In this document: positions 19,917 to 31,246 of the stretch, piece by piece
Position numbering within the stretch: the stretch's first letter is position 1
Layout of the letters: each line of letters starts with the position of its first letter
Assembly: GCF_003024805.1 (NCBI RefSeq)
Contig: NZ_PUEC01000012.1
Location: 1 to 64,000 of the forward strand
Direction: 5' to 3'
DNA length: 64,000 nt
Origin: Duncaniella muris
Lineage (GTDB): Bacteria; Bacteroidota; Bacteroidia; Bacteroidales; Muribaculaceae
Translations under genes and position numbers: made by a program
Notes under the pieces: generated by a model
Database searches by the model: none
What the model was told of the DNA's origin: nothing
The model's input: the letters and a program-made list of their open reading frames with translations, nothing else

Positions 19917-22799
19917 ATGAAACAGATTCTTACCATACTCATGATATTCTGCGCCCTTGCCGCAGGCGCAGCAGGCAAAACCCCAAAAAGGAGCAAAGCA
20001 AAAAAGGCCAGAACCACCAAAGTTGTCTCGGCCCCAGCCGTGCCGCGTCCGGCCCGCGAAGCGTTTGTCACACGTGTGGACGCACCGTCTGTCAAAAAAG
20101 GGCTTGCCGGCAAGAACATAGCCCTCTGGCAAAGCCACGGCCGATATTTCGACCAGAATGAAGAGCGATGGATGTGGCAGCGCGCACGGCTCATGGGCAC
20201 GGTAGAAGACCTGTATCCCCAGGCCTACGTGCTCCCCTACCTCATCCCGATGCTCGAAAATGCCGGGGCCTATGTGATGACTCCGCGCGAACGTGACACC
20301 TCGACTCAGGAAATAATCGTCGACATGGACGGAGGCTTCGCTCAGAAGGACTATAACGAGAAAAACGGACAACAGAAATGGACAGCCGCTGCCGGCATCA
20401 AAGGTTTCGGATATAAGAAAGAGATATTGGAAACCGGCGACAATCCCTTCCGCATGGGCTCTGTCCGCGAAGTGACCACCGTCACCGACCCGGCCAAAGC
20501 ATCCACGGCATCCTGGTATGCCGATTTCCCCAAAGGCGGCAACTATGCGCTCTACATCAGCTATGCCTCGCTCCCAAACAGCGCCCGCGACGCGCGCTAC
20601 ACCGTGAACTCTCTCGCCGGAAGCGAGGAGTTTGACGTGAACCAGCGCATCGGCGGAGGCACATGGGTCTATCTCGGCACCTTCCCCTTTGCGGCAGGCA
20701 AAAGCGACACCCCGGTGGTGGAACTCTCAAACGTCTCGACCGAAAGCGGCAAGGTGGTCACGGCCGATGCCGTCAAGATAGGCGGCGGCATGGGCAATGT
20801 CAGCCGCTCGGCTGCAGGCGGCGAGCCTGTGGTTAGCACCTATCCGCGTTTCACCGAAGGCGCGCGCTACTGGATGCAGTGGGCCGGTGTCCCTTCGTCG
20901 GTCTATAGCATCACCAACGGCGAAAACGACTATGAGGACGACTACAAGAGCCGCGCCCTCTGGGCCAACTACCTTGCCGGAGGCTCATCGCAGCTTCCGG
21001 GAGAGAAAGGCCTCGGAATTCCCGTTGACCTCTCGTTTGCATTCCATACCGACGCCGGCACCACATCTGACCCCGGCGAGACTGTGGGCACGATGCCTAT
21101 TGTCTACACCAAGGGCGCCCGCCTGGGAAGCGGCGAGGCCCGCACCACCTCACGCCGCTATGCCGACATTGTAACCGATCAGATTGTCAGCGACATCCAG
21201 ACCCTCTACGAGCCGACATGGACCCGCCGCAAGCTGCGCGACAAACCCTATCGTGAGGTGATGGACACCAAAGTGCCCGCAATGCTGATCGAGCTTATGA
21301 GCCATCAGAACTTCGCCGACATGCGCTATGGCCTCGACCCCACATTCCGTTTCACCGTCAGCAGAGCCATCTATAAAGGCATTCTGAAATACCTCCATGA
21401 AAAAGACGGTGTGCCCTACGTGGTAGAGCCACTGCCCGTCAGCCATTTCCGCATCGCGGGAAGCGGAGGCGAATATCTTCTCACCTGGCAGGGTGTCGAT
21501 GATCCTCTGGAGCCCTCGGCCAAACCCACATACTATATTGTCTATGAACGTATTGACAACGGAGCCTTCACCGAACTGGCCGTGACTGACGATCCGCAGC
21601 TCACGGTCCGCGTCAAGGATGACCGCATCTACAGCTACAAGGTTGTCGCGGCCAATGACGGAGGCATCAGCTTCCCCTCCGAGATTCTATCACTGTGCGA
21701 CACCGGCACCGACAGACCTCAGGTGCTGATTGTCAACGGCTTCACCCGCATCTCAGGCCCGGCCGAAGTCTATGCCTCAGGCCGCGTAGGCTTCGACTAT
21801 GAGGAAGACCACGGAGTGCCCTACATCAGCGACATCCACTTCACCGGCCTCCAGACCGAATTCCGCCCCGGAGTAGAATGGACATCCAATGACTCTCCCG
21901 GCCACGGCGCCAGCCGCGCGACCCATGAGACCGAAGTCTTCGCCGGCAACACCTTTGACTTCGTCTATGTCCACGGCACCGCCATACGCGCCGCCGGCCA
22001 CTCCTTCATCTCGGCCGGAGTCGACGCCTTTGTCGACAACATGCCCGAAGCCCGCATCATCGACCTCATACTCGGCAAGCAGAAAGAAATCACCGTAGGC
22101 ACCTCGCAGGAACGCAAGTTCAAACCCTTCACCGACGAACTCAAGCAACGCCTGAGCCAATTCTGCGACGCCGGCGGCTCACTCTTCGTGTCGGGCAGCT
22201 ACATAGGCAGCGACCTCTTTGACAACCGCCACTCCATAGGCTCGCAGCGGGTAGCCGACGGACAATTCGGCCACTCGGTGCTCGGCCTCCAGTGGCGTCA
22301 GGCAAAAGCCACAGTCACAGGCAAAGTCCGCGAAGTCAAATCGAAATACGCCGAATTCCATCCGGGCCTCTCGTTCACCTTCCGTCAGCAGCTCAACGCC
22401 GACTGCTACGCCGTGGAATCGCCTGAATCATTCAGCCCCATCGACCCGTCGAACGGCTCCGCCATACTGCGCTACACCGAAAACGACTACATAGCCGGCG
22501 TGGCCTTCGACCCCGGCACCCACCGCGCCGTGACCCTCGGCTTCCCCTTCGAGACCATCACCGGCAGCTACGAGCGTGACGCGCTTATGAAACAGATCCT
22601 CGACTTCTTCACCGCCCCTGAAGGCGTGCATCCCGGCGCACGCCCCAAAGTGCAGCCGGAAACCATCATAGGCCACGAACCACCCACCACACCGACGCAG
22701 ACCCGCACCCCGCGCAACCTGCGCCCACGCGAAGCAGCTGAACTCGCCGAAAACACCGAAGCCCGCAAACCCCGCAAAGGCCCCGCCCGCCAAGCCTAA
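19917..22799 (+). CDS. Secreted amidase-like protein with golvesin-like domain
   Basis: A 960-residue secreted protein: signal peptide ([20 protein letters not shown]), a basic linker, then a region (about 60-470) resembling N-acetylmuramoyl-L-alanine amidase (Amidase_3 fold). It has an [10 protein letters not shown] start, a SFAFHTDAG segment where the SxHxNA motif of amidases would fall, and [13 protein letters not shown] as the late active-site Glu region. A beta-sandwich insert (about 135-290, [19 protein letters not shown]) resembles the golvesin C-terminal/xanthan-lyase module. A fibronectin-like segment and a long C-terminal part follow, ending in a Pro/Arg-rich tail. Such proteins in Bacteroidales are often labelled xanthan lyase; I favour a peptidoglycan-related hydrolase. 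The ATG at 19917 is chosen over the upstream TTG (19911) because GGAGG sits 9 bases before it. Confidence 0.7.
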
Positions 22800-22953: not shown

Positions 22954-24285
22954 ATGAAATCCCGTTTTTCAACCAAAACCATGAAGGATCTGGCCGCTCA
23001 GGCCGGCCGGAGTCCGATATTCATACATCTGTCAGACGATGACGTGACCTTTGTAAACGGCGGTGACCACAGACTGATACAGGTGCTCCGCGAGACCGGT
23101 GCGGCAATGGTGTATTCCGACTTCCTTACACCTGCCGACGGCGGCGATCCTTTGCCCCATCGGCTGATCGACTGCCAGTTCGGGGCAATACGCGATGATT
23201 TCGACTTCGGCCGGGTCGTGGCTGTTGACCCCGCCATGATGCGCCGTGCGGTGGAGGATATGACCGACGATTTCGAGGCTGCCGGCTGGTATGACCTGCG
23301 CCTGCGCCTCTCGCGTCTCGGCAGGATTGTGCACGTCCCGGAGACTCTCTACATGGCTTCGCCCAAGGCATCAGTCTGCGCCGATGAGGGAGAAGAGCAG
23401 TTCCGCTACGTGGACCCGCGCAACCGCAGTTCGCAGATCGAGATGGAAAAAGCCGCCACGGCCCATCTCAAGGCCCTCGGCGCTCTGGTGACACCCGCCG
23501 GAATCACGCGCCCGGACCTCGATGAAGGCTCCTTCCCGACAGAGGCTTCGGTGATCATCCCCGTGCGCAACCGCCACCGCACCATAGCCGATGCCGTCAG
23601 GAGCGCTCTGGCTCAGCAGACATCATTCCCGTTCAACGTCATTGTGATAGACAACCGCAGCACCGACGGCACATCAGAGATTCTTGCCGAAATCGCGGCC
23701 TCAGACCCGCGTCTTAAGATCATAAGCACCGCCCCGGCTCCCGCGCCGGCTCCGGGCATAGGCGGATGCTGGAACCTCGGCATCAACAGCCCCGACTGCG
23801 GACGTTTCGCCGTGCAGCTCGACAGCGATGACATCTACAGCCGCCCCGACACTCTTGAAATGATCGTCGGCAAGTTCCGCGAGACCGGTGCGGCAATGGT
23901 CATCGGCTCTTATATGCTCACCGACTTTAAGGGCAATCCGCTGCCCCCCGGACTGATAGACCATGCGGAATGGACCGATGACAACGGGCCCAACAACGCC
24001 CTGCGCATCAACGGCCTCGGCGCGCCGAGGGCTTTCTTCACCCCCGTGGCCCGCGAGATAGGCTTTCCGGATGTCAGCTACGGCGAAGACTACTCGATGG
24101 GGCTTGCCGTCAGCCGCCGCTACCCGATAGGGCGCATCTATGAACCTCTCTACTCATGCCGCCGCTGGGAAGGCAACTCCGACCACGCCCTCAGCCCTGA
24201 GCGCATCAACGCCAACAACACCTACAAGGACCGTATGCGCACCCTCGAACTCATCTCACGCCAGAAGCTTAACCATGAATCCTGA
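22954..24285 (+). CDS. Family 2 glycosyltransferase with duplicated domain
   Basis: A 443-residue cytosolic or membrane-associated transferase. The C-terminal half is a recognisable GT2/GT-A domain: [18 protein letters not shown] (198-215), DNRSTDGT, and the nucleotide/metal DxD-like QLDSDD at 288-293. The N-terminal half repeats the second part of the fold in degenerate form: LSDDD (26-30) and [13 protein letters not shown] (46-58) parallel [16 protein letters not shown] (309-324). The two copies share an identical 24-base stretch at 23088-23111 and 23877-23900, so the duplication or gene conversion is recent. An odd Pro-Ala run (PAPAPAPG) lies in the transferase domain. The ATG at 22954 is chosen; an upstream start at 22897 would add unconserved-looking residues. 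It overlaps the DUF4922 gene by 11 bases. Confidence 0.82.
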
Positions 24286-25216
24286 AAGTTTCTTCCGGTC
24301 TGAACTTGCGGCGTGGCCTCTAGCTGCTGAAAACTTCCGCAATCTTGAAAAGGCATCGTCCCAGGCAGTAAGCCTGACTGACAGCGAGCCGTGGAGAATC
24401 CGCAAGCTCCTTGTCAGCCACCGGCGCGCCTCCATCACAGCCAAGACAGACCCGCAGAGCATAGCCGCCCGACCCTGCTTCCTCTGCGAGGCCAACCGGC
24501 CGCCGGAACAGAGCGCCATCACCGGCCACGGCTTTCAGACTCTTGTCAACCCCTATCCCCTCGCCCGGCGGCACTACACCATAGCATCCGCGCGCCATGG
24601 ACCGCAGCGCATCAGCGGACACCTGCAGGAGATGGCCCGGCTCACGCGTGAATTCCGCGACCTATGCGTCTTCTACAACGGTCCGCTCTGCGGAGCCTCC
24701 GCTCCTGACCATCTGCACTTCCAGGCTATCTCTACGGAGGTTGCCGCCGGTCTGACCGATCCGAGACTGCCTCTGGAGACTATTGACCCGTCAGACGGAT
24801 GCAAACTGCTGCGCAGCGTCTGCGGCGCGGTCCCCTATCCGTTCTTCATCATTGATTCCACAGACACAGCCGCCATTGTCCGCTGCGCCGACCTGCTGCT
24901 CGACTCGCTGCCGCAGGCTGAGCCGGAACCGATGGTCAACGTGGCTATGGTGATGCTCCCCGACGGCAGACTCCGCACATTCATAGCCCCGCGCCGCCGC
25001 CACCGCCCGGCTGTCTACGGCTCCGGACCCGGTAAGATGCTCATAAGCCCCGCCACAATCGAAATGCTCGGCACCATAGTCTGCTCACGCCCTGAAGACT
25101 TCGAGAGGCTCGACCTTGCCACCGCCACCGCCATACTGAGCGAAGTCAGCCTCGACGAACAGCAATTCGCCGCCACAATTCACCGCTACCAACAACTCAA
25201 CACCCCACAGCAATAA
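24275..25216 (+). CDS. DUF4922 protein, HIT/GalT-like nucleotidyl-transfer fold
   Basis: A 313-residue cytosolic protein of the DUF4922 family. It has a CFLC pair at 68-71 and, at 146-150, HLHFQ preceded by GASAPD. The same H-L-H-F-Q string is, as I recall it, the active-site histidine motif of GDP-hexose phosphorylases of the VTC2/GDPGP1 type and is close to HxHxQ in GalT and Ap4A phosphorylase. A nucleotide-sugar phosphorylase or nucleotidyl-transfer role is therefore plausible but unproven. The ATG lies inside the end of the glycosyltransferase gene (11-base overlap), and the stop overlaps the next ATG (TAATG), so all three genes are translationally coupled. Confidence 0.75.
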
Positions 25217-26550
25217 TGCCCCAGGAACCACGAGTCAGAGTCGGCATCCTCTCAGCCCCGACCATAAGTTTCACCCTCACCGGTCTCTACTCCACGCCCT
25301 CAGGCGAGATGGTCACCGGGCGTCAGGAAGTAAGCCTCAGCGAATCAGGCCTCGCCGTCAGCTGGAACGGCCGCGTCAGCCAGTCGCTCGAATTCGAACC
25401 CACCTCCTATGCAGGCGACAGTTTCGAACTCGAAGGAGTGACCATCGGAGTAGATTTCCATTGGGAGCGCAAAGAAAACCAGCGCTTCCGCGGAGCCTTG
25501 CGCGTGATAGTTGAAAACGGCAGACTAACGGCCGTCAACGAAGTCAATGTCGAAGACTATCTTGTCAGCGTCATCTCAAGCGAAATGAGCTCCACCTCCT
25601 CGCTGGAACTGCTGAGGGCACATGCCGTGATCTCGCGCGGATGGGTGCTGTCAATGATGTCACGAGGCAAGGAGCCCATCCCTCCGGCCGACCGCCGCCC
25701 CGATGTCAGAGCCCTGAATCCCGGACCCTCGCTCATCAGATACTGGGACCGCGAAGACCATCTCAATTTCGACGTCTGCGCCGACGACCACTGCCAGCGC
25801 TATCAGGGCATCAGCCGTGTCTCTACCCCTGTGGCCGCCGGAGCCGTGGCCGACACCCGCGGCATGGTCCTCACCTTCGACGGCGAGCTCTGCGACACCC
25901 GCTTCTCTAAATGCTGCGGCGGAGTCTTCGAAGTCTTCGAGACATGCTGGAATGACACTCCGCGCCCCTATCTCCAGCCCCGGCGCGACGGCGTAGACCC
26001 GACTGACTTCCCCGACCTTACAGTGGAAGAAAACGCCGTCAGCTGGATACTCGGCAAGCCGGAAGCCTTCTGCAACACCACCGACCGGCGAGTGCTCTCA
26101 CAGGTGCTCAACGGCTATGACCGCGAGACTCCCGATTTCTACCGCTGGACAGAGACACTGCCGCAGGAAAAAATTGCACGCCTCGTGGCCGACCGTCTCG
26201 GCGAAGATCTCGGCCGCATACTGAGTCTGACGCCCCTGACCCGCGGCACCTCCGGACGAATCCGTGAACTGAAAATCACCGGCACAAAGGGAGAACGCAT
26301 CATAGGCAAGGAACTGATGATACGCCGCACTCTCTCTGACAGCCATCTCTACAGCTCGGCCTTTGTGGTCGAGCCTTTGGCTCCGGAAGCCGACGGCACC
26401 CCTTCAGGCTTCACTCTCCACGGAGCCGGATGGGGCCACGGCGCAGGCCTGTGTCAGATCGGAGCCGCTATCATGGGCGAACGCGGCTATGGCTACTCCG
26501 AAATCCTCGCCCGCTACTACCCCGGCTCAACCCTCACAAAACTATATTAG
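25216..26550 (+). CDS. SpoIID/LytB-domain protein without signal peptide
   Basis: A 444-residue homologue of the SpoIID/LytB fold, whose founding member cleaves glycan strands lacking stem peptides. The core has VNVEDYLVSVISSEM (general-acid Glu at residue 123), LLRAHAVISRGWVL, and the C-terminal GWGHGAGLCQIGA (405-417), matching the GxGHGxGxSQxGA signature with Cys for Ser. A middle insert holds a CADDHCQRY segment and SKCCGG, so cysteines are frequent. The N-terminus ([12 protein letters not shown]) starts directly in the domain; there is no secretion signal, so the protein should stay in the cytoplasm, unlike SpoIID. It is third in the overlapping operon. Bacteroidota do not sporulate. Confidence 0.85.
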   Translation: MPQEPRVRVGILSAPTISFTLTGLYSTPSGEMVTGRQEVSLSESGLAVSWNGRVSQSLEFEPTSYAGDSFELEGVTIGVDFHWERKENQRFRGALRVIVENGRLTAVNEVNVEDYLVSVISSEMSSTSSLELLRAHAVISRGWVLSMMSRGKEPIPPADRRPDVRALNPGPSLIRYWDREDHLNFDVCADDHCQRYQGISRVSTPVAAGAVADTRGMVLTFDGELCDTRFSKCCGGVFEVFETCWNDTPRPYLQPRRDGVDPTDFPDLTVEENAVSWILGKPEAFCNTTDRRVLSQVLNGYDRETPDFYRWTETLPQEKIARLVADRLGEDLGRILSLTPLTRGTSGRIRELKITGTKGERIIGKELMIRRTLSDSHLYSSAFVVEPLAPEADGTPSGFTLHGAGWGHGAGLCQIGAAIMGERGYGYSEILARYYPGSTLTKLY

Positions 26551-26682: not shown

Positions 26683-28182
26683 ATGAAAAGAATCGTCACT
26701 TGCCTTTTTGCCGGAGCGGCGGCCGCTGTCGCAGCAGCTGCTTTGCCCGAAGTATGGCCAGCCGCCGGAGCGGAGGTCTCGCCAGACACACGCCTCACCA
26801 TCTGTTTCCCCTCTACGCCGACCCTCGGCACCTCCGGGGTGATACGCATCTTTGATGCCGCGACAGACGCTCAGGTAGACTCGCTGGACCTCTCGATACC
26901 TGCCGGCCCGACTGAAAAGACCAAACTCCCCAAAGCTCCATACACCCTTGAGCCTTACAACTATCACACTCCGCGCCTGACCAACGCCACCTGTGAGCCG
27001 GGCACTCCATCGGGCACTGCCGCACGCGACACTTCGCGCTATCAGCTGACAATAATAGGCGGATTCACTGACGGATTCCACTTCTATCCCGTGATGCTAT
27101 CGGGCAACACCGCTGAGATATATCCTCACCACAACCTGCTCGAATACGGACGCGAGTACTATGTCACCGTCCCGGCATCAGCCTTCACCCTTGCCAAAGG
27201 AAAGTTCAAGGGTATAAGCAAGAAAGACGGTTGGAAATTCAGGACACGGCCCGAAGCACCCGCTCAGGAGCATCGGCAGCTGACCGTGGCCCGCGACGGT
27301 TCAGGCGACTTCCTCACCCTCCAGGGCGCCCTCGACCATGTGCCTGACTTCAGCGCCGAACCGTGGAAGATTTTCATCAAGAACGGAGACTATGAGGAGC
27401 TGGTCTACTTCCGCAACAAGACCAACCTCACCATCGAAGGGGAGAGCCGCGAGGGGGTCTATGTCCACTATCCCAACAATGAGGTGTTCAATCCCCACCC
27501 CGCTGATGTCAGCACCAACGAGTGGCTCGGCACTTTCCCCTCACGCCGCGCCGCATTTGCCGCAGACCACTGCTCAGACCTCACGCTCAGGAATTTCACC
27601 GTGGCCACCACTGTCACAGGTCAGGCCGAAGGCCTCCTGCTCAACGGCAACCGCATATATCTCGAAGACATGATCATCAGAGGTTCCGGCGATGCGCTGC
27701 AGTCCAACGGCCCGGCATACTTCAGAAACTGCCGGCTCGAAGGTCATGGCGACACCGTGCTCGGCCGTGGTCCGGCATACTTCAAGAACTGCACCATCGT
27801 CACCTCCGGCCCGTTTGCCTACATACGCAACGGATCTTCCTGCCACGGTGACGTCTTTGTGGACTGCACGATGATAGGCAAGGGCGACAAGGCGGTCTTT
27901 GCCCGGACCAACGGCACCTATCCCAACGCCGAGTTTGTGCTCATCGACTGCCGCCTCGACGGCATCCGTCCTGAGGGATGGAGTGGTCTTGAGAAAGATG
28001 GCAACACCTACGTGCGCTATTGGGAGGCCGGATCGGTCAACCTCTCAGACGGCAAGCCAGCCGACACCTCGCGCCGCGCCCCCGGCTCGCGTGTGCTCGA
28101 CCCCGTGAAAGACAAGGCCCTTATAGAACTCTACCGCAACCCCGCATGGGTGCTCGGCGGATGGGACCCCATGAAGAAGTGA
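26683..28182 (+). CDS. Divergent CE8 pectinesterase with N-terminal Ig-like domain
   Basis: Exported esterase expected to remove methyl groups from homogalacturonan. The signal peptide (MKRIVTCLFAGAAAAVAAA) is followed by an SbsA/Big_5-like beta-sandwich (about 25-190). The right-handed beta-helix catalytic domain starts at LTVARDGSGDFLTLQGALD. Active-site positions are altered but traceable: Gln314 in QAEG (for QAVA), Asp337 in GSGDAL (for YQDTL), Asp357 in GHGDTVLG (for TVDFIFG), and Arg408 in FARTNG where LGRPW is usual. All four key residues are present, so activity is likely, perhaps on a different ester. It opens the pectin locus, 132 bases after the SpoIID-domain gene. Confidence 0.85.
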   Translation: MKRIVTCLFAGAAAAVAAAALPEVWPAAGAEVSPDTRLTICFPSTPTLGTSGVIRIFDAATDAQVDSLDLSIPAGPTEKTKLPKAPYTLEPYNYHTPRLTNATCEPGTPSGTAARDTSRYQLTIIGGFTDGFHFYPVMLSGNTAEIYPHHNLLEYGREYYVTVPASAFTLAKGKFKGISKKDGWKFRTRPEAPAQEHRQLTVARDGSGDFLTLQGALDHVPDFSAEPWKIFIKNGDYEELVYFRNKTNLTIEGESREGVYVHYPNNEVFNPHPADVSTNEWLGTFPSRRAAFAADHCSDLTLRNFTVATTVTGQAEGLLLNGNRIYLEDMIIRGSGDALQSNGPAYFRNCRLEGHGDTVLGRGPAYFKNCTIVTSGPFAYIRNGSSCHGDVFVDCTMIGKGDKAVFARTNGTYPNAEFVLIDCRLDGIRPEGWSGLEKDGNTYVRYWEAGSVNLSDGKPADTSRRAPGSRVLDPVKDKALIELYRNPAWVLGGWDPMKK

Positions 28183-28437: not shown

Positions 28438-29940
28438 ATGAAACTTAAAAGTCTTTCAGCCTACGCGGTAGGCTTGTTTGTGGGTCTCGCCCAGATGACA
28501 AGCGCCACCGCCCAGACCACTGACTACAGTTCCTACTACAAGAATCTCCCCATCAACCAGCCTCAGGTCTCGGCCCCGGTGATTCCGGCCTATGAGATCA
28601 AGATCACTGACTTCGGCGGTGTCAACGATGGTGTCACTCTCAACACCGAAGCCTTCGCCAAAGCAATGGCCCACCTCGCCTCCAAGGGCGGCGGCCGCCT
28701 CGTGGTTCCGGAAGGAATCTGGTACACCGGCCCGATTGCATTTGAAAACAACGTCGAACTTCATCTCGAACGCGGCGCGCTGGTGCTTTTCAGCGAAAAC
28801 CTCGCCGACTATCCCGCAGTAGCCTCTGACTGGGAAGGTCTCACGACTCACCGCGCCACATCTCCCCTCTCGGCCCGCGGCAAACATGACATCGCAATCA
28901 CCGGCGACGGCACTTTCAACGGCAACGGCCAGAAATGGCGCCCTGTAAAGAGAGGCAAAATGACTGACAACCAGTGGAAAGCGCTCCTGAAGAGCGGCTG
29001 CGTCAACGCCAAGGGCGATGTGTGGTTTCCCAACGAACGCATCCGCGAGGTCTATGAAAACAAGGCACTCCAGGCCAAGGTGCACCACGGTGACAAAGAA
29101 ACCGTTGACTATGCCCATGACTTCCTCCGCCCGGTGCTCCTCTCGTTCATCGACTGCAAGAATGTGCTACTCAAAGATGCCACATTCGAAAACTCTCCCG
29201 CCTGGAACCTTCACCCGCTCCTGTGCGAGAATCTGATTGTAGACAACATCAACGTCCGCAACCCCTGGTATGCGCAGAACGGTGACGGCATCGACATCGA
29301 GTCGTGCAACAAGGTGCTCGTCATCAACAGCCGCTTCGATGTGGGCGACGACGCCATCTGCATCAAATCAGGCAAGGACAAGGACGGCCGCGAACGTGGC
29401 ATTCCCTGCCGCGACGTAGTGATAGAAGGCTGCACTGTCTATCACGGCCACGGCGGCTTCGTGATCGGCTCTGAAATGTCTGGCGGCTGCAAAGACATTG
29501 TGATCCGCAACAGCGTGTTCATCGGCACCGACGTGGGCCTGCGTTTCAAATCTACCCGCGGTCGCGGCGGCGTGGTCGAAAACATATATGTGGACAATAT
29601 CAAGATGACCGACATTGCCGGCGAGGCTCTGATCTTCGACATGTACTACGGCATCAAGCCGGGCGCTCCTGTTCCTCCGGTGACAGAAGAGACCCCCTCG
29701 TTCCGCAACATCTACATCAAAGACGTGACCTGCCGCTCGGCCAAACGCGCGGCGCTCTTCAACGGTCTGCCTGAGATGCCGATGAAAAACGTGGTCATCA
29801 CCGACTCCCGTTTCCGTGCCGACGCAGGCTTCCTGCTCAACCACGTGGACGGCCTGACGCTCGACAATGTCACAGTAGATGTGGCCGGCGACAAGATCAC
29901 CGAAGGCGAGGGTGTCAAGAATGTAAAAATCAAAAAGTGA
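28438..29940 (+). CDS. GH28 polygalacturonase
   Basis: Exported glycoside hydrolase family 28 enzyme that hydrolyses alpha-1,4-galacturonan (inverting). The 500-residue protein begins with a signal peptide ending near TSATAQ, then a parallel beta-helix starting at ITDFGGVNDGVTLNTEAF. All four catalytic signatures are intact: NGDGID (Asn281, Asp283, Asp286), GDDAIC (Asp304, Asp305), GHGGFVIGSE (His338) and RFKSTRGRGG (Arg369, Lys371). It is followed 19 bases later by an MFS transporter gene. With the two CE8 genes it forms the pectin-cleaving part of the locus. It could act exo or endo; the QAKVHHGDKE-type insert near residue 215 hints at an exo-acting pocket, which is inference. Confidence 0.92.
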   Translation: MKLKSLSAYAVGLFVGLAQMTSATAQTTDYSSYYKNLPINQPQVSAPVIPAYEIKITDFGGVNDGVTLNTEAFAKAMAHLASKGGGRLVVPEGIWYTGPIAFENNVELHLERGALVLFSENLADYPAVASDWEGLTTHRATSPLSARGKHDIAITGDGTFNGNGQKWRPVKRGKMTDNQWKALLKSGCVNAKGDVWFPNERIREVYENKALQAKVHHGDKETVDYAHDFLRPVLLSFIDCKNVLLKDATFENSPAWNLHPLLCENLIVDNINVRNPWYAQNGDGIDIESCNKVLVINSRFDVGDDAICIKSGKDKDGRERGIPCRDVVIEGCTVYHGHGGFVIGSEMSGGCKDIVIRNSVFIGTDVGLRFKSTRGRGGVVENIYVDNIKMTDIAGEALIFDMYYGIKPGAPVPPVTEETPSFRNIYIKDVTCRSAKRAALFNGLPEMPMKNVVITDSRFRADAGFLLNHVDGLTLDNVTVDVAGDKITEGEGVKNVKIKK

Positions 29941-29959: not shown

Positions 29960-31246
29960 TTGAAAAGCAATCCGAAACAACCGAACGTGAGTCGGAATCC
30001 CTGGACGTGGATTCCGACTCTCTATTTTGCCCAAGGGCTCCCCTACGTTGCCGTGATGACTATTTCGGTGATCATGTACAAACGTCTGGGCATTTCCAAC
30101 ACCGACATAGCCCTCTATACCGGATGGCTCTACCTGCCGTGGGTCATCAAGCCCTTCTGGAGTCCCTTTGTTGACATCATCAGCACCAAACGGCGCTGGA
30201 CTCTCACCATGCAGTGGCTCATAGCCGCCGCTTTTGCCGGCATAGCCTTCGCGCTTCCCACTCCGCTGTGGTTCTCTCTGACACTGGCCGTGTTCTGGAT
30301 GGTAGGATTCACCTCCGCCACCCACGACATAGCTGCTGACGGCTACTATATGCTTGCTCTGAGCGAACACCAGCAGTCGCTCTACGTGGGCATACGCTCC
30401 ACGTTCTACCGTGTGGCCACCGTAGTGGGCCAGGGGCTGCTCGTCATCATAGCCGGAGCGCTTGAAACCGCCACCGGTGACATTCCGCTCTCATGGGCCA
30501 TAGTCTTCGCCATACTGTCGCTGCTCTTCCTCGGTTTCGCCCTCTACCACTCATGGGCCATGCCCAAGGTGGAAAGCAAGGCCGGAAAACTGCGCTCGGC
30601 TTCTGATGTGTGGCGTGAATTTGTCGATGTCTTCACCGAATTCTTCAGAAAGAAGCAGGTCGGGGTGGCAATTATCTTCATGCTCCTCTACCGCCTGCCT
30701 GAGGCCCAGCTGGTCAAGCTCATCAACCCCTTCCTCCTCGACCCTGCGGAGGCCGGAGGGCTCGGTCTGAGCACCGCGCAGGTCGGGGTGGTCTACGGCA
30801 CTGTGGGAATCATCGGGCTCACACTCGGCGGCATCGTTGGCGGCATCGTGGCCGCGCGCCGCGGACTCGGCTTCTGGCTGCGCCCTATGGCATGGAGCAT
30901 GTCGCTCACCTGCCTGACATTCGTGTATCTCAGTTTCGCCACAGACGCTCCGCTGGCGGTTGTCAACATCTGTGTCTCCATCGAGCAGTTCGGCTACGGC
31001 TTCGGCTTCACGGCCTATATGCTCTATCTGATCTACTTCTCCGAAGGGCGTCACCGCACGGCCCACTACAGTATCTGCACCGGATTCATGGCCCTCGGCA
31101 TGATGCTTCCGGGCATGGCCGCCGGTTGGATTCAGGAGGCAGTTGGCTACCAGAACTTCTTCATCTGGACTATGATCTGCTGTCTGGCCACTATCGGCGT
31201 CACATATCTTATCAGGATCGACCCTTCATTCGGGGTGAAGAAATAG
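29960..31246 (+). CDS. AmpG-like MFS transporter
   Basis: A 428-residue 12-helix permease. The N-terminus (WTWIPTLYFAQGLPYVAVMTISVIMYKRLG) is typical of the AmpG/acetyl-CoA transporter branch of the major facilitator superfamily; THDIAADGYYM and the loop after helix 2 (DIISTKRRWT) also fit. The start codon is TTG (29960); no ATG precedes the first helix. It lies 19 bases after GH28 and probably shares its transcript, so an oligogalacturonide or sugar substrate is as plausible as muropeptides. A bidirectional terminator follows. Confidence 0.82.
   Translation: MKSNPKQPNVSRNPWTWIPTLYFAQGLPYVAVMTISVIMYKRLGISNTDIALYTGWLYLPWVIKPFWSPFVDIISTKRRWTLTMQWLIAAAFAGIAFALPTPLWFSLTLAVFWMVGFTSATHDIAADGYYMLALSEHQQSLYVGIRSTFYRVATVVGQGLLVIIAGALETATGDIPLSWAIVFAILSLLFLGFALYHSWAMPKVESKAGKLRSASDVWREFVDVFTEFFRKKQVGVAIIFMLLYRLPEAQLVKLINPFLLDPAEAGGLGLSTAQVGVVYGTVGIIGLTLGGIVGGIVAARRGLGFWLRPMAWSMSLTCLTFVYLSFATDAPLAVVNICVSIEQFGYGFGFTAYMLYLIYFSEGRHRTAHYSICTGFMALGMMLPGMAAGWIQEAVGYQNFFIWTMICCLATIGVTYLIRIDPSFGVKK

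What the first reader, a model, noticed from the sequence alone, without database searches (positions are those of the whole stretch)
22954..26550. Overlapping GT2-DUF4922-SpoIID gene set: a candidate undescribed glycan system
Three genes overlap by 11 and 1 bases: a two-domain glycosyltransferase, a DUF4922 protein with [11 protein letters not shown] and CFLC, and a SpoIID/LytB-domain protein with intact Glu123 and GWGHGAGLCQIGA but no export signal. SpoIID cleaves bare glycan strands; the HLHFQ string is that of GDP-hexose phosphorylases (VTC2/GDPGP1) as I recall it. A cytosolic pathway making or recycling a glycan or nucleotide sugar, with a lyase-like enzyme acting inside the cell, would be new. 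An amidase-like secreted protein is encoded just upstream.
Basis: partly seen in the sequence, partly recalled or inferred. Interest (0 to 1): 0.7.

Follow-up and report, generated by a model that had tools for sequence, protein, structure and literature searches.

The report
Cytosolic enzyme trio for wall-sugar salvage
Three adjacent bacterial genes, fused into one protein in some gut bacteria, look like the unstudied inside-the-cell step of a known pathway that recovers sugars from old or foreign cell walls.

Summary
In detail: GT2 (22954-24285), DUF4922 (24275-25216) and a SpoIID/LytB protein without a recognisable export signal (25216-26550) overlap by 11 and 1 bases. The trio is conserved: 73 of the 80 best named loci carry all three, and 31 carry them as one frame of 1221-1355 codons, 29 of these titled Prevotellaceae or kin. 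In 296 genomes of the phylum 41 have any of the three and 39 have all, even where they lie far apart. The setting is peptidoglycan salvage, not an unknown glycan: an AmpG-like permease gene is in 69 of 80 loci, often with NamZ, a kinase or MurQ. The same order is a published Tannerella forsythia operon (gtf-gtf-lytB-ampG); I saw no role given to gtf or lytB. DUF4922 has the Ap4A-phosphorylase fold; SpoIID keeps its catalytic Glu. In Bacteroidales trio and AnmK largely exclude each other (AnmK in 1 of 41 against 12 of 20), less so in another class (16 of 38). Best reading: a cytosolic set processing AmpG-imported GlcNAc-(anhydro)MurNAc, SpoIID handling the anhydro sugar. The pathway is well supported; the reactions are inference.

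The parts
19917..22799 (+). Secreted amidase-like protein with Golvesin_C insert (the kind annotated 'xanthan lyase' in Tannerella and Parabacteroides)
   Evidence: Golvesin_C 80.1 bits, Amidase_3 26.4 (cut-off 27); presumed metal and catalytic residues H74, E97 (50/50 each), H377, E459 (51/51 each); leader [20 protein letters not shown]; a relative is in the locus in 31 of 80 named loci, not always adjacent
22954..24285 (+). Family-2 glycosyltransferase, C-terminal GT-A domain with DSDD and GEDY motifs, degenerate N-terminal half
   Evidence: Glycos_transf_2 72.4 bits; D292, D293, E378, D379 in 153/153 rows; best solved relative chondroitin synthase 2z87, profile E 2.1e-23
24275..25216 (+). 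DUF4922 protein, Ap4A-phosphorylase/GalT fold with HxHxQ motif
25216..26550 (+). SpoIID/LytB-domain protein without recognisable export signal
29960..31246 (+). AmpG-like muropeptide permease, split from the trio here by two pectin genes
   Evidence: Best NCBIfam hit TIGR00901, 169.8 bits, E 7.5e-50, under its cut-off of 350; its blast cluster has members in 108 of 140 loci examined

Best explanation
The trio is the cytosolic processing unit of the Bacteroidota peptidoglycan-salvage pathway. A secreted amidase strips stem peptides from wall glycan; AmpG imports the bare disaccharides GlcNAc-MurNAc and GlcNAc-anhydroMurNAc; the GT2, DUF4922 and SpoIID proteins, acting together or as one fused protein, break these down to sugars or sugar phosphates for a MurK-like kinase, MurQ or UDP-MurNAc synthesis. 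I think it most likely that SpoIID handles the 1,6-anhydro bond of MurNAc (its known chemistry, or the reverse of it) and so stands in for AnmK, and that GT2 and DUF4922 act on the GlcNAc half. Shown here: conservation, co-occurrence, fusion, lack of a recognisable leader, folds, intact motifs, genomic setting, partial exclusion with AnmK. Inferred: cytosolic location, substrates, direction of each reaction, and that the three form a complex where they are not fused.
For: All three in 73 of 80 named loci; 31 triple fusions, 3 GT-DUF and 4 DUF-SpoIID fusions. In the 31 triple-fusion loci an AmpG-like gene is present in 31, and the amidase, NamZ, kinase, MurQ, FAD-oxidase and NagX relatives in none. 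In the 69 of 80 loci with an AmpG-like frame it is on the SpoIID strand in 69 and within 300 bases of the SpoIID frame in 60, median 4. Genome level: DUF4922 41, GT 40, SpoIID subfamily 40 of 296; 39 have all, 255 none. AmpG-like genes in 32 of 41 trio genomes against 51 of 255 others, Fisher p 6e-13. T. forsythia: same order in one transcript (PMC5388701, passages); its AmpG imports GlcNAc-MurNAc and GlcNAc-anhMurNAc (PMC7670621, abstract). Leader: 3 of 96 unfused SpoIID frames against 42 of 50 amidase frames pass a crude hydrophobicity test, the latter searched over a wider stretch. AnmK in 1 of 41 trio relatives against 12 of 20 without, and in 0 of 31 triple-fusion genomes.
Against: In the other class 16 of 38 trio genomes do have AnmK, one of them with a weak match (17 of 41 in the whole sample against 189 of 255); 3 of 10 further named trio genomes do, and so does the control genome Bacteroides ihuae. 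Of the 8 relatives with neither, 4 are under 90% complete. Nine of 41 trio genomes showed no AmpG-like gene at E 1e-30, and 8 of those 9 have AnmK; one of the nine (G283, L191) has a more distant AmpG relative beside the trio. In that class SpoIID often lies beside genes with no known tie to the wall. AmpG matches are all under the curated cut-off. T. forsythia grew on free anhMurNAc only to an OD of about 0.28 (PMC7670621, passage), which may be an uptake limit or may speak against ring opening. Genomes in a family are kin, so p-values overstate; by family in the order AnmK is in 1 of 9 trio families and 12 of 16 others, p 0.004. No substrate was tested.
Confidence: 0.6

Rival explanations
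1. SpoIID works in its ordinary forward direction as a lytic transglycosylase, but in the cytosol, on imported bare glycan pieces longer than a disaccharide; GT2 and DUF4922 do a separate nucleotide-sugar job in the same pathway.
For: Fold and catalytic Glu of SpoIID kept; SpoIID of Chlamydia is called a lytic transglycosylase and muramidase (PMC9928106, passages); the amidase would supply bare strands.
Against: The importer known for this operon is reported for disaccharides (PMC7670621, abstract), which contain no MurNAc-GlcNAc bond for a forward lytic transglycosylase to cut (established chemistry). Fusions tie the three reactions together.
Confidence: 0.2
2. The trio is biosynthetic: GT2 builds a glycan or glycosylates a protein, DUF4922 makes or recycles its nucleotide sugar, SpoIID trims it.
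For: The T. forsythia authors describe the operon as coding also for enzymes of protein glycosylation (PMC5388701, passage). GT2 catalytic motifs are intact and the best solved relative is a polymerase, chondroitin synthase. In the other class a GT4-type glycosyltransferase gene recurs beside SpoIID (17 of 50 loci).
Against: Among the recurring neighbours that I annotated there is no flippase or polymerase; in Bacteroidales they are mostly salvage genes. Several smaller recurring clusters were not annotated.
Confidence: 0.12
3. One reading: a GDP-hexose (or other NDP-hexose) phosphorylase pathway unrelated to the cell wall.
For: Fold of the Ap4A-phosphorylase/GalT kind; two plant papers on GDP-L-galactose phosphorylase contain the word DUF4922 (search listing only).
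Against: Genomic setting and genome-level link to AmpG.
Confidence: 0.05
4. SpoIID leaves the cell by a route that needs no leader and acts in the periplasm with the amidase, like LytB with LytC (recalled pairing).
For: Amidase gene in the locus in 31 of 80.
Against: Fused behind GT2 and DUF4922 in 31 of 80 loci; 93 of 96 unfused frames fail the crude leader test.
Confidence: 0.03

Closest known systems
Tannerella forsythia Tanf_08345-08385 operon (muropeptide and MurNAc salvage, PMC5388701)
   Same: Same gene order: xanthan lyase, gtf, gtf, lytB, ampG, ybbC (which I take to be NamZ), then murTKQ; one transcript
   Different: There lytB is labelled 'amidase enhancer precursor' and the second gtf is what I take to be DUF4922; I saw no role for either in the passages read. 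Here SpoIID is found leaderless, the three are found to fuse and to co-occur, and two pectin genes split the operon. The Tannerella DNA itself was not compared
SpoIID/LytB lytic transglycosylases (C. difficile 5i1t, B. anthracis 4rwr)
   Different: No recognisable export signal; own signature VCADDHCQRYQG and further invariant Cys; fused to partner enzymes
Ap4A phosphorylase Apa2 and the GalT superfamily
   Different: About 15% identity; keeps CxxC and His residues that I recall as the GalT zinc site; substrate unknown
AnmK/NagZ branch of peptidoglycan recycling (E. coli, recalled)
   Same: Would treat the same AmpG-imported anhydro-disaccharide
   Different: AnmK is in 0 of 27 genomes of the window's genus, the window's own included; a glycosyltransferase, a GalT-like enzyme and a SpoIID enzyme are there instead. 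NagZ was not searched

Membership tests
SpoIID/LytB family | Sequence and fold | tested here: met
SpoIID/LytB family | Catalytic Glu in the sEM motif | tested here: met
   E123 in 135 of 135 rows with a residue there; its identity as the catalytic Glu is recalled
SpoIID/LytB family | Metal-binding Cys pair of the clostridial enzyme (recalled) | tested here: inconclusive
   C188 and C193 in 136/136; they match CTDYKHC of 5i1t by eye, while HMMER aligned that stretch differently
SpoIID/LytB family | Export from the cytosol | tested here: not met
   93 of 96 unfused frames fail a crude leader test; others are fused behind GT2 and DUF4922. No dedicated signal-peptide predictor was at hand
SpoIID/LytB family | Lytic transglycosylase activity | not testable with these tools
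   No assay
GalT / Ap4A phosphorylase superfamily | Fold | tested here: met
GalT / Ap4A phosphorylase superfamily | HxHxQ active-site motif | tested here: met
   H146, H148 148/148; Q150 145/148
Ap4A phosphorylase proper | PF19327 over its cut-off | tested here: not met
   14.7 bits, cut-off 23.1; 22.6 in the fused L060
GDP-hexose phosphorylase (VTC2/GDPGP1) | GDP-hexose phosphorolysis | not testable with these tools
   No assay; no solved member appeared in the lists, which excludes nothing
AmpG muropeptide permease | TIGR00901 over its cut-off | tested here: not met
   169.8 bits, cut-off 350; still its best NCBIfam family. None of 296 genomes passes the cut-off, though the T. forsythia protein of this phylum is reported functional
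Amidase_3 | PF01520 over its cut-off | tested here: not met
   26.4 bits, cut-off 27
Amidase_3 | Metal and catalytic residues | tested here: met
   H74, E97, H377, E459 invariant; their assignment as ligands is recalled
Bacteroidota peptidoglycan-salvage operon | Gene order as in T. forsythia | tested here: met
   Amidase-GT-DUF4922-SpoIID-AmpG-NamZ in many loci against the figure legend; in the window two genes intervene before AmpG and no NamZ, kinase or MurQ was noted beside it

The most novel reading that the evidence does not exclude
An energy-conserving phosphorolytic relay for wall disaccharides. GT2 runs backwards and moves GlcNAc from GlcNAc-(anhydro)MurNAc to a nucleoside diphosphate; DUF4922 splits that NDP-GlcNAc with phosphate to GlcNAc-1-phosphate and returns the nucleotide; SpoIID opens the 1,6-anhydro ring of MurNAc or passes it on without hydrolysis. 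Net: phosphorolysis of a peptidoglycan disaccharide by one fused protein, replacing NagZ and AnmK.
Probability: 0.15. Interest if true: 0.85.

Novelty: new variant of a known kind. Interest (0 to 1): 0.62.

Why it matters
Gut and oral Bacteroidota live among wall fragments, and how they process imported muropeptides is largely open. A lytic-transglycosylase-type enzyme kept inside the cell and fused to a glycosyltransferase and a nucleotidyl-transfer enzyme would be a second solution to anhydro-MurNAc recycling. It makes three annotated but, as far as I saw, unassigned genes directly testable in laboratory strains, and gives DUF4922 a pathway.

Tried and rejected
DUF4922 as a MurU-like uridylyltransferase that fills a gap: less likely, since a MurU-like gene (NF045761, about 92-144 bits, none over the cut-off of 250) occurs in 54 of 61 relatives, with and without the trio. 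Trio as feeder of MurQ only: MurQ (over 200 bits) is in 11 of 61 relatives and in 0 of the 27 genomes of the window's genus, and in 13 of 31 triple-fusion genomes, so it is not the fixed outlet. A recurring GT4 gene beside SpoIID in the other class and its next neighbours (BatA/VWA, a GTP-binding protein, an aromatic amino acid lyase) gave no functional lead. The DUF4922 protein alone found nothing better than E 0.85 among solved structures; the profile found Apa2 only (best E 9.9e-5). Paper searches: DUF4922, SpoIID with Bacteroides, cytoplasmic and glycosyltransferase, a loose one of which 15 of 3,679 papers were listed, Tannerella+NamZ+AmpG, three of peptidoglycan recycling, Bacteroidetes, AmpG, DUF1343, B. 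thetaiotaomicron+AmpG+NagZ, amidase enhancer+Bacteroidetes, SpoIID+AmpG, lytic transglycosylase called cytoplasmic, cytosolic or intracellular. In the titles, abstract starts and passages that I saw none describes the trio as a cytosolic unit; NamZ papers of the subscription kind were not held.
Full report
Observation. The three frames, their overlaps of 11 and 1 bases and the quoted motifs are in the sequence as described. Pfam places the proteins as Glycos_transf_2, DUF4922 and SpoIID, all over cut-off. The SpoIID protein has no recognisable leader. The window's genome seems to be one of Muribaculaceae: same-genus contigs of G005, G006 and G023 have the exact length of records titled Muribaculaceae or Duncaniella (one, of G001, matches a record titled Bacteroides sp.).

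Conservation. DUF4922 of this kind is in 41 of 61 relatives. In the 41 loci read around it, GT2, DUF4922 and SpoIID are usually neighbours, often with the amidase gene in front; GT2 and DUF4922 are one frame in L036, L038, L044 and L069, DUF4922 and SpoIID in L060 and L063. Of the 80, 73 hold all three genes: 36 as separate frames, 31 as triple fusions of 1221-1355 codons, 3 of the 4 DUF4922-SpoIID fusions and all 3 GT2-DUF4922 fusions. Seven loci are incomplete: L106, L116 and L160 are cut next to DUF4922, L167 is a short contig, and L114, L130 and L174 lack a partner within longer loci. Of the 31 triple fusions 29 are titled Prevotella, Prevotellaceae, Xylanibacter, Segatella or Leyella (the last three being close to Prevotella as I recall), L129 only bacterium and L159 only Bacteroidales. 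Pfam confirms all three domains in the fused frames L111 (1332 aa) and L136 (1250 aa). The annotation of a Bacteroides finegoldii record shows DUF4922 in a long frame followed by SpoIID/LytB and an MFS transporter, that of Parabacteroides distasonis xanthan lyase, glycosyltransferase, DUF4922, with SpoIID not next door.

Genome-level link. In 296 genomes of the phylum, at least 90% complete, strong DUF4922 matches occur in 41 (three weak ones, G087, G119 and G220, were dropped), GT2 of this kind (E up to 1e-60) in 40, and SpoIID of this kind (over 500 bits) in 40. Thirty-nine have all three and 255 none; G216 lacks GT2 and G283 lacks SpoIID. Thirty-eight of the 41 belong to another class of the phylum; none of the sampled same-class genomes outside the order has DUF4922. 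In the other class the genes are often scattered: in G184, G244 and G248 DUF4922 and SpoIID lie on one contig about 0.59 Mb or more apart. Genomes within a family are kin, so the Fisher p-values are only a guide.

Setting. A blast cluster of AmpG-like genes has members in 108 of 140 loci, the window's stretch among them. In the 80 named loci an AmpG-like frame is in 69, on the SpoIID strand in 69 of 69, within 300 bases of the SpoIID frame in 60, upstream in one (L153), at a median of 4 bases between frames counted stop to stop. Other relatives in the 80 loci: amidase 31, NamZ 28, NagX-like 20, an FAD/4Fe-4S oxidase of the GlcD kind 17, a BadF-type kinase 14, MurQ 8. In the 31 triple-fusion loci the AmpG-like gene is in 31 and none of the others is found. 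In the window the permease (29960-31246) is cut off from the trio by a pectinesterase and a GH28 gene; in the near relative L032 three frames lie between. Among trio genomes 32 of 41 have an AmpG-like gene at E 1e-30, among others 51 of 255. In the other class, loci L191, L195, L196 and L199 keep an AmpG-like gene, and L196 and L199 a BadF-type kinase, beside trio genes.

Known operon. In Tannerella forsythia the genes Tanf_08345-08370 are xanthan lyase, gtf, gtf, lytB, ampG and ybbC, transcribed together with murTKQ (PMC5388701, passages). Its AmpG takes in GlcNAc-MurNAc and GlcNAc-anhMurNAc (PMC7670621, abstract and passages); the wild type grew on a lytic-transglycosylase digest to an OD of about 0.8, on a muramidase digest to about 1.3, and on free anhMurNAc to about 0.28. 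I read passages, not whole papers, and saw no role given to gtf, gtf or lytB. From PMC10465942 and PMC9928106 I saw passages only.

AnmK. The kinase that opens anhydro-MurNAc (established for E. coli) is in 1 of 41 relatives with the trio's DUF4922 and 12 of 20 without; 4 of the 8 with neither are under 90% complete; by family it is in 1 of 9 against 12 of 16. It is in 0 of 31 triple-fusion genomes and 3 of 10 other named trio genomes, whose completeness is not told. In the phylum sample it is in 17 of 41 trio genomes and 189 of 255 others, p 7e-5; outside the window's order that is 16 of 38, G276 with a weak match. So the exclusion is strong in Bacteroidales and partial elsewhere. Bacteroides ihuae among the controls has both.

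Mechanism. Shown: a conserved, co-occurring, fusing trio without recognisable leader, with intact motifs, tied to AmpG. Inferred: it works on what AmpG brings in. A salvage pathway must split GlcNAc from MurNAc and open the anhydro ring; AnmK is mostly missing where the trio is in Bacteroidales, and SpoIID chemistry makes or, run backwards, opens that ring, so I assign SpoIID to it (about 0.4 for that step alone). GT2 beside a GalT-fold phosphorylase-like enzyme suggests handling of GlcNAc through a nucleotide sugar; the reverse-GT relay is my boldest reading (0.15). I put 0.85 on membership in the salvage pathway and 0.6 on the statement as a whole.

Verdict. Not an undescribed glycan system but an uncharacterised, unusual part of a known salvage operon. 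New variant of a known kind; interest 0.62.

Noticed in passing
window 26683-28182 and 28438-29940: A pectinesterase gene and a GH28 gene sit between SpoIID and the AmpG-like gene, breaking an operon that is contiguous in many relatives.
   Followed up: partly
L102:12901-15750 and relatives in 17 of 80 named loci: An FAD/4Fe-4S oxidase of the GlcD kind lies beside NamZ in several loci; it could oxidise the D-lactate that MurQ releases.
   Followed up: no
L189, L192-L194, L198 and others: In the other class a GT4-type glycosyltransferase gene recurs beside SpoIID, in 17 of the 50 loci L181-L230.
   Followed up: partly
window 22954-23100 (N-terminus of the glycosyltransferase): About 55-60 N-terminal residues present in relatives outside the genus are missing here and in most same-genus rows (by eye).
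   Followed up: no
L229 and L230 (genome G290): Two copies of the GT2: one in a stretch with SpoIID, AmpG, NamZ and MurQ but no DUF4922, and one in a long frame with DUF4922 elsewhere.
   Followed up: no
MT836381.1, MT836053.1, MT835805.1: Records filed as bacteriophage from human faeces encode SpoIID of this kind at 53-58% identity; they may be bacterial pieces.
   Followed up: no
genomes G000-G026 (window's genus): Neither AnmK nor a strong MurQ match in any of 27 genomes, so where salvaged MurNAc goes there is open.
   Followed up: partly
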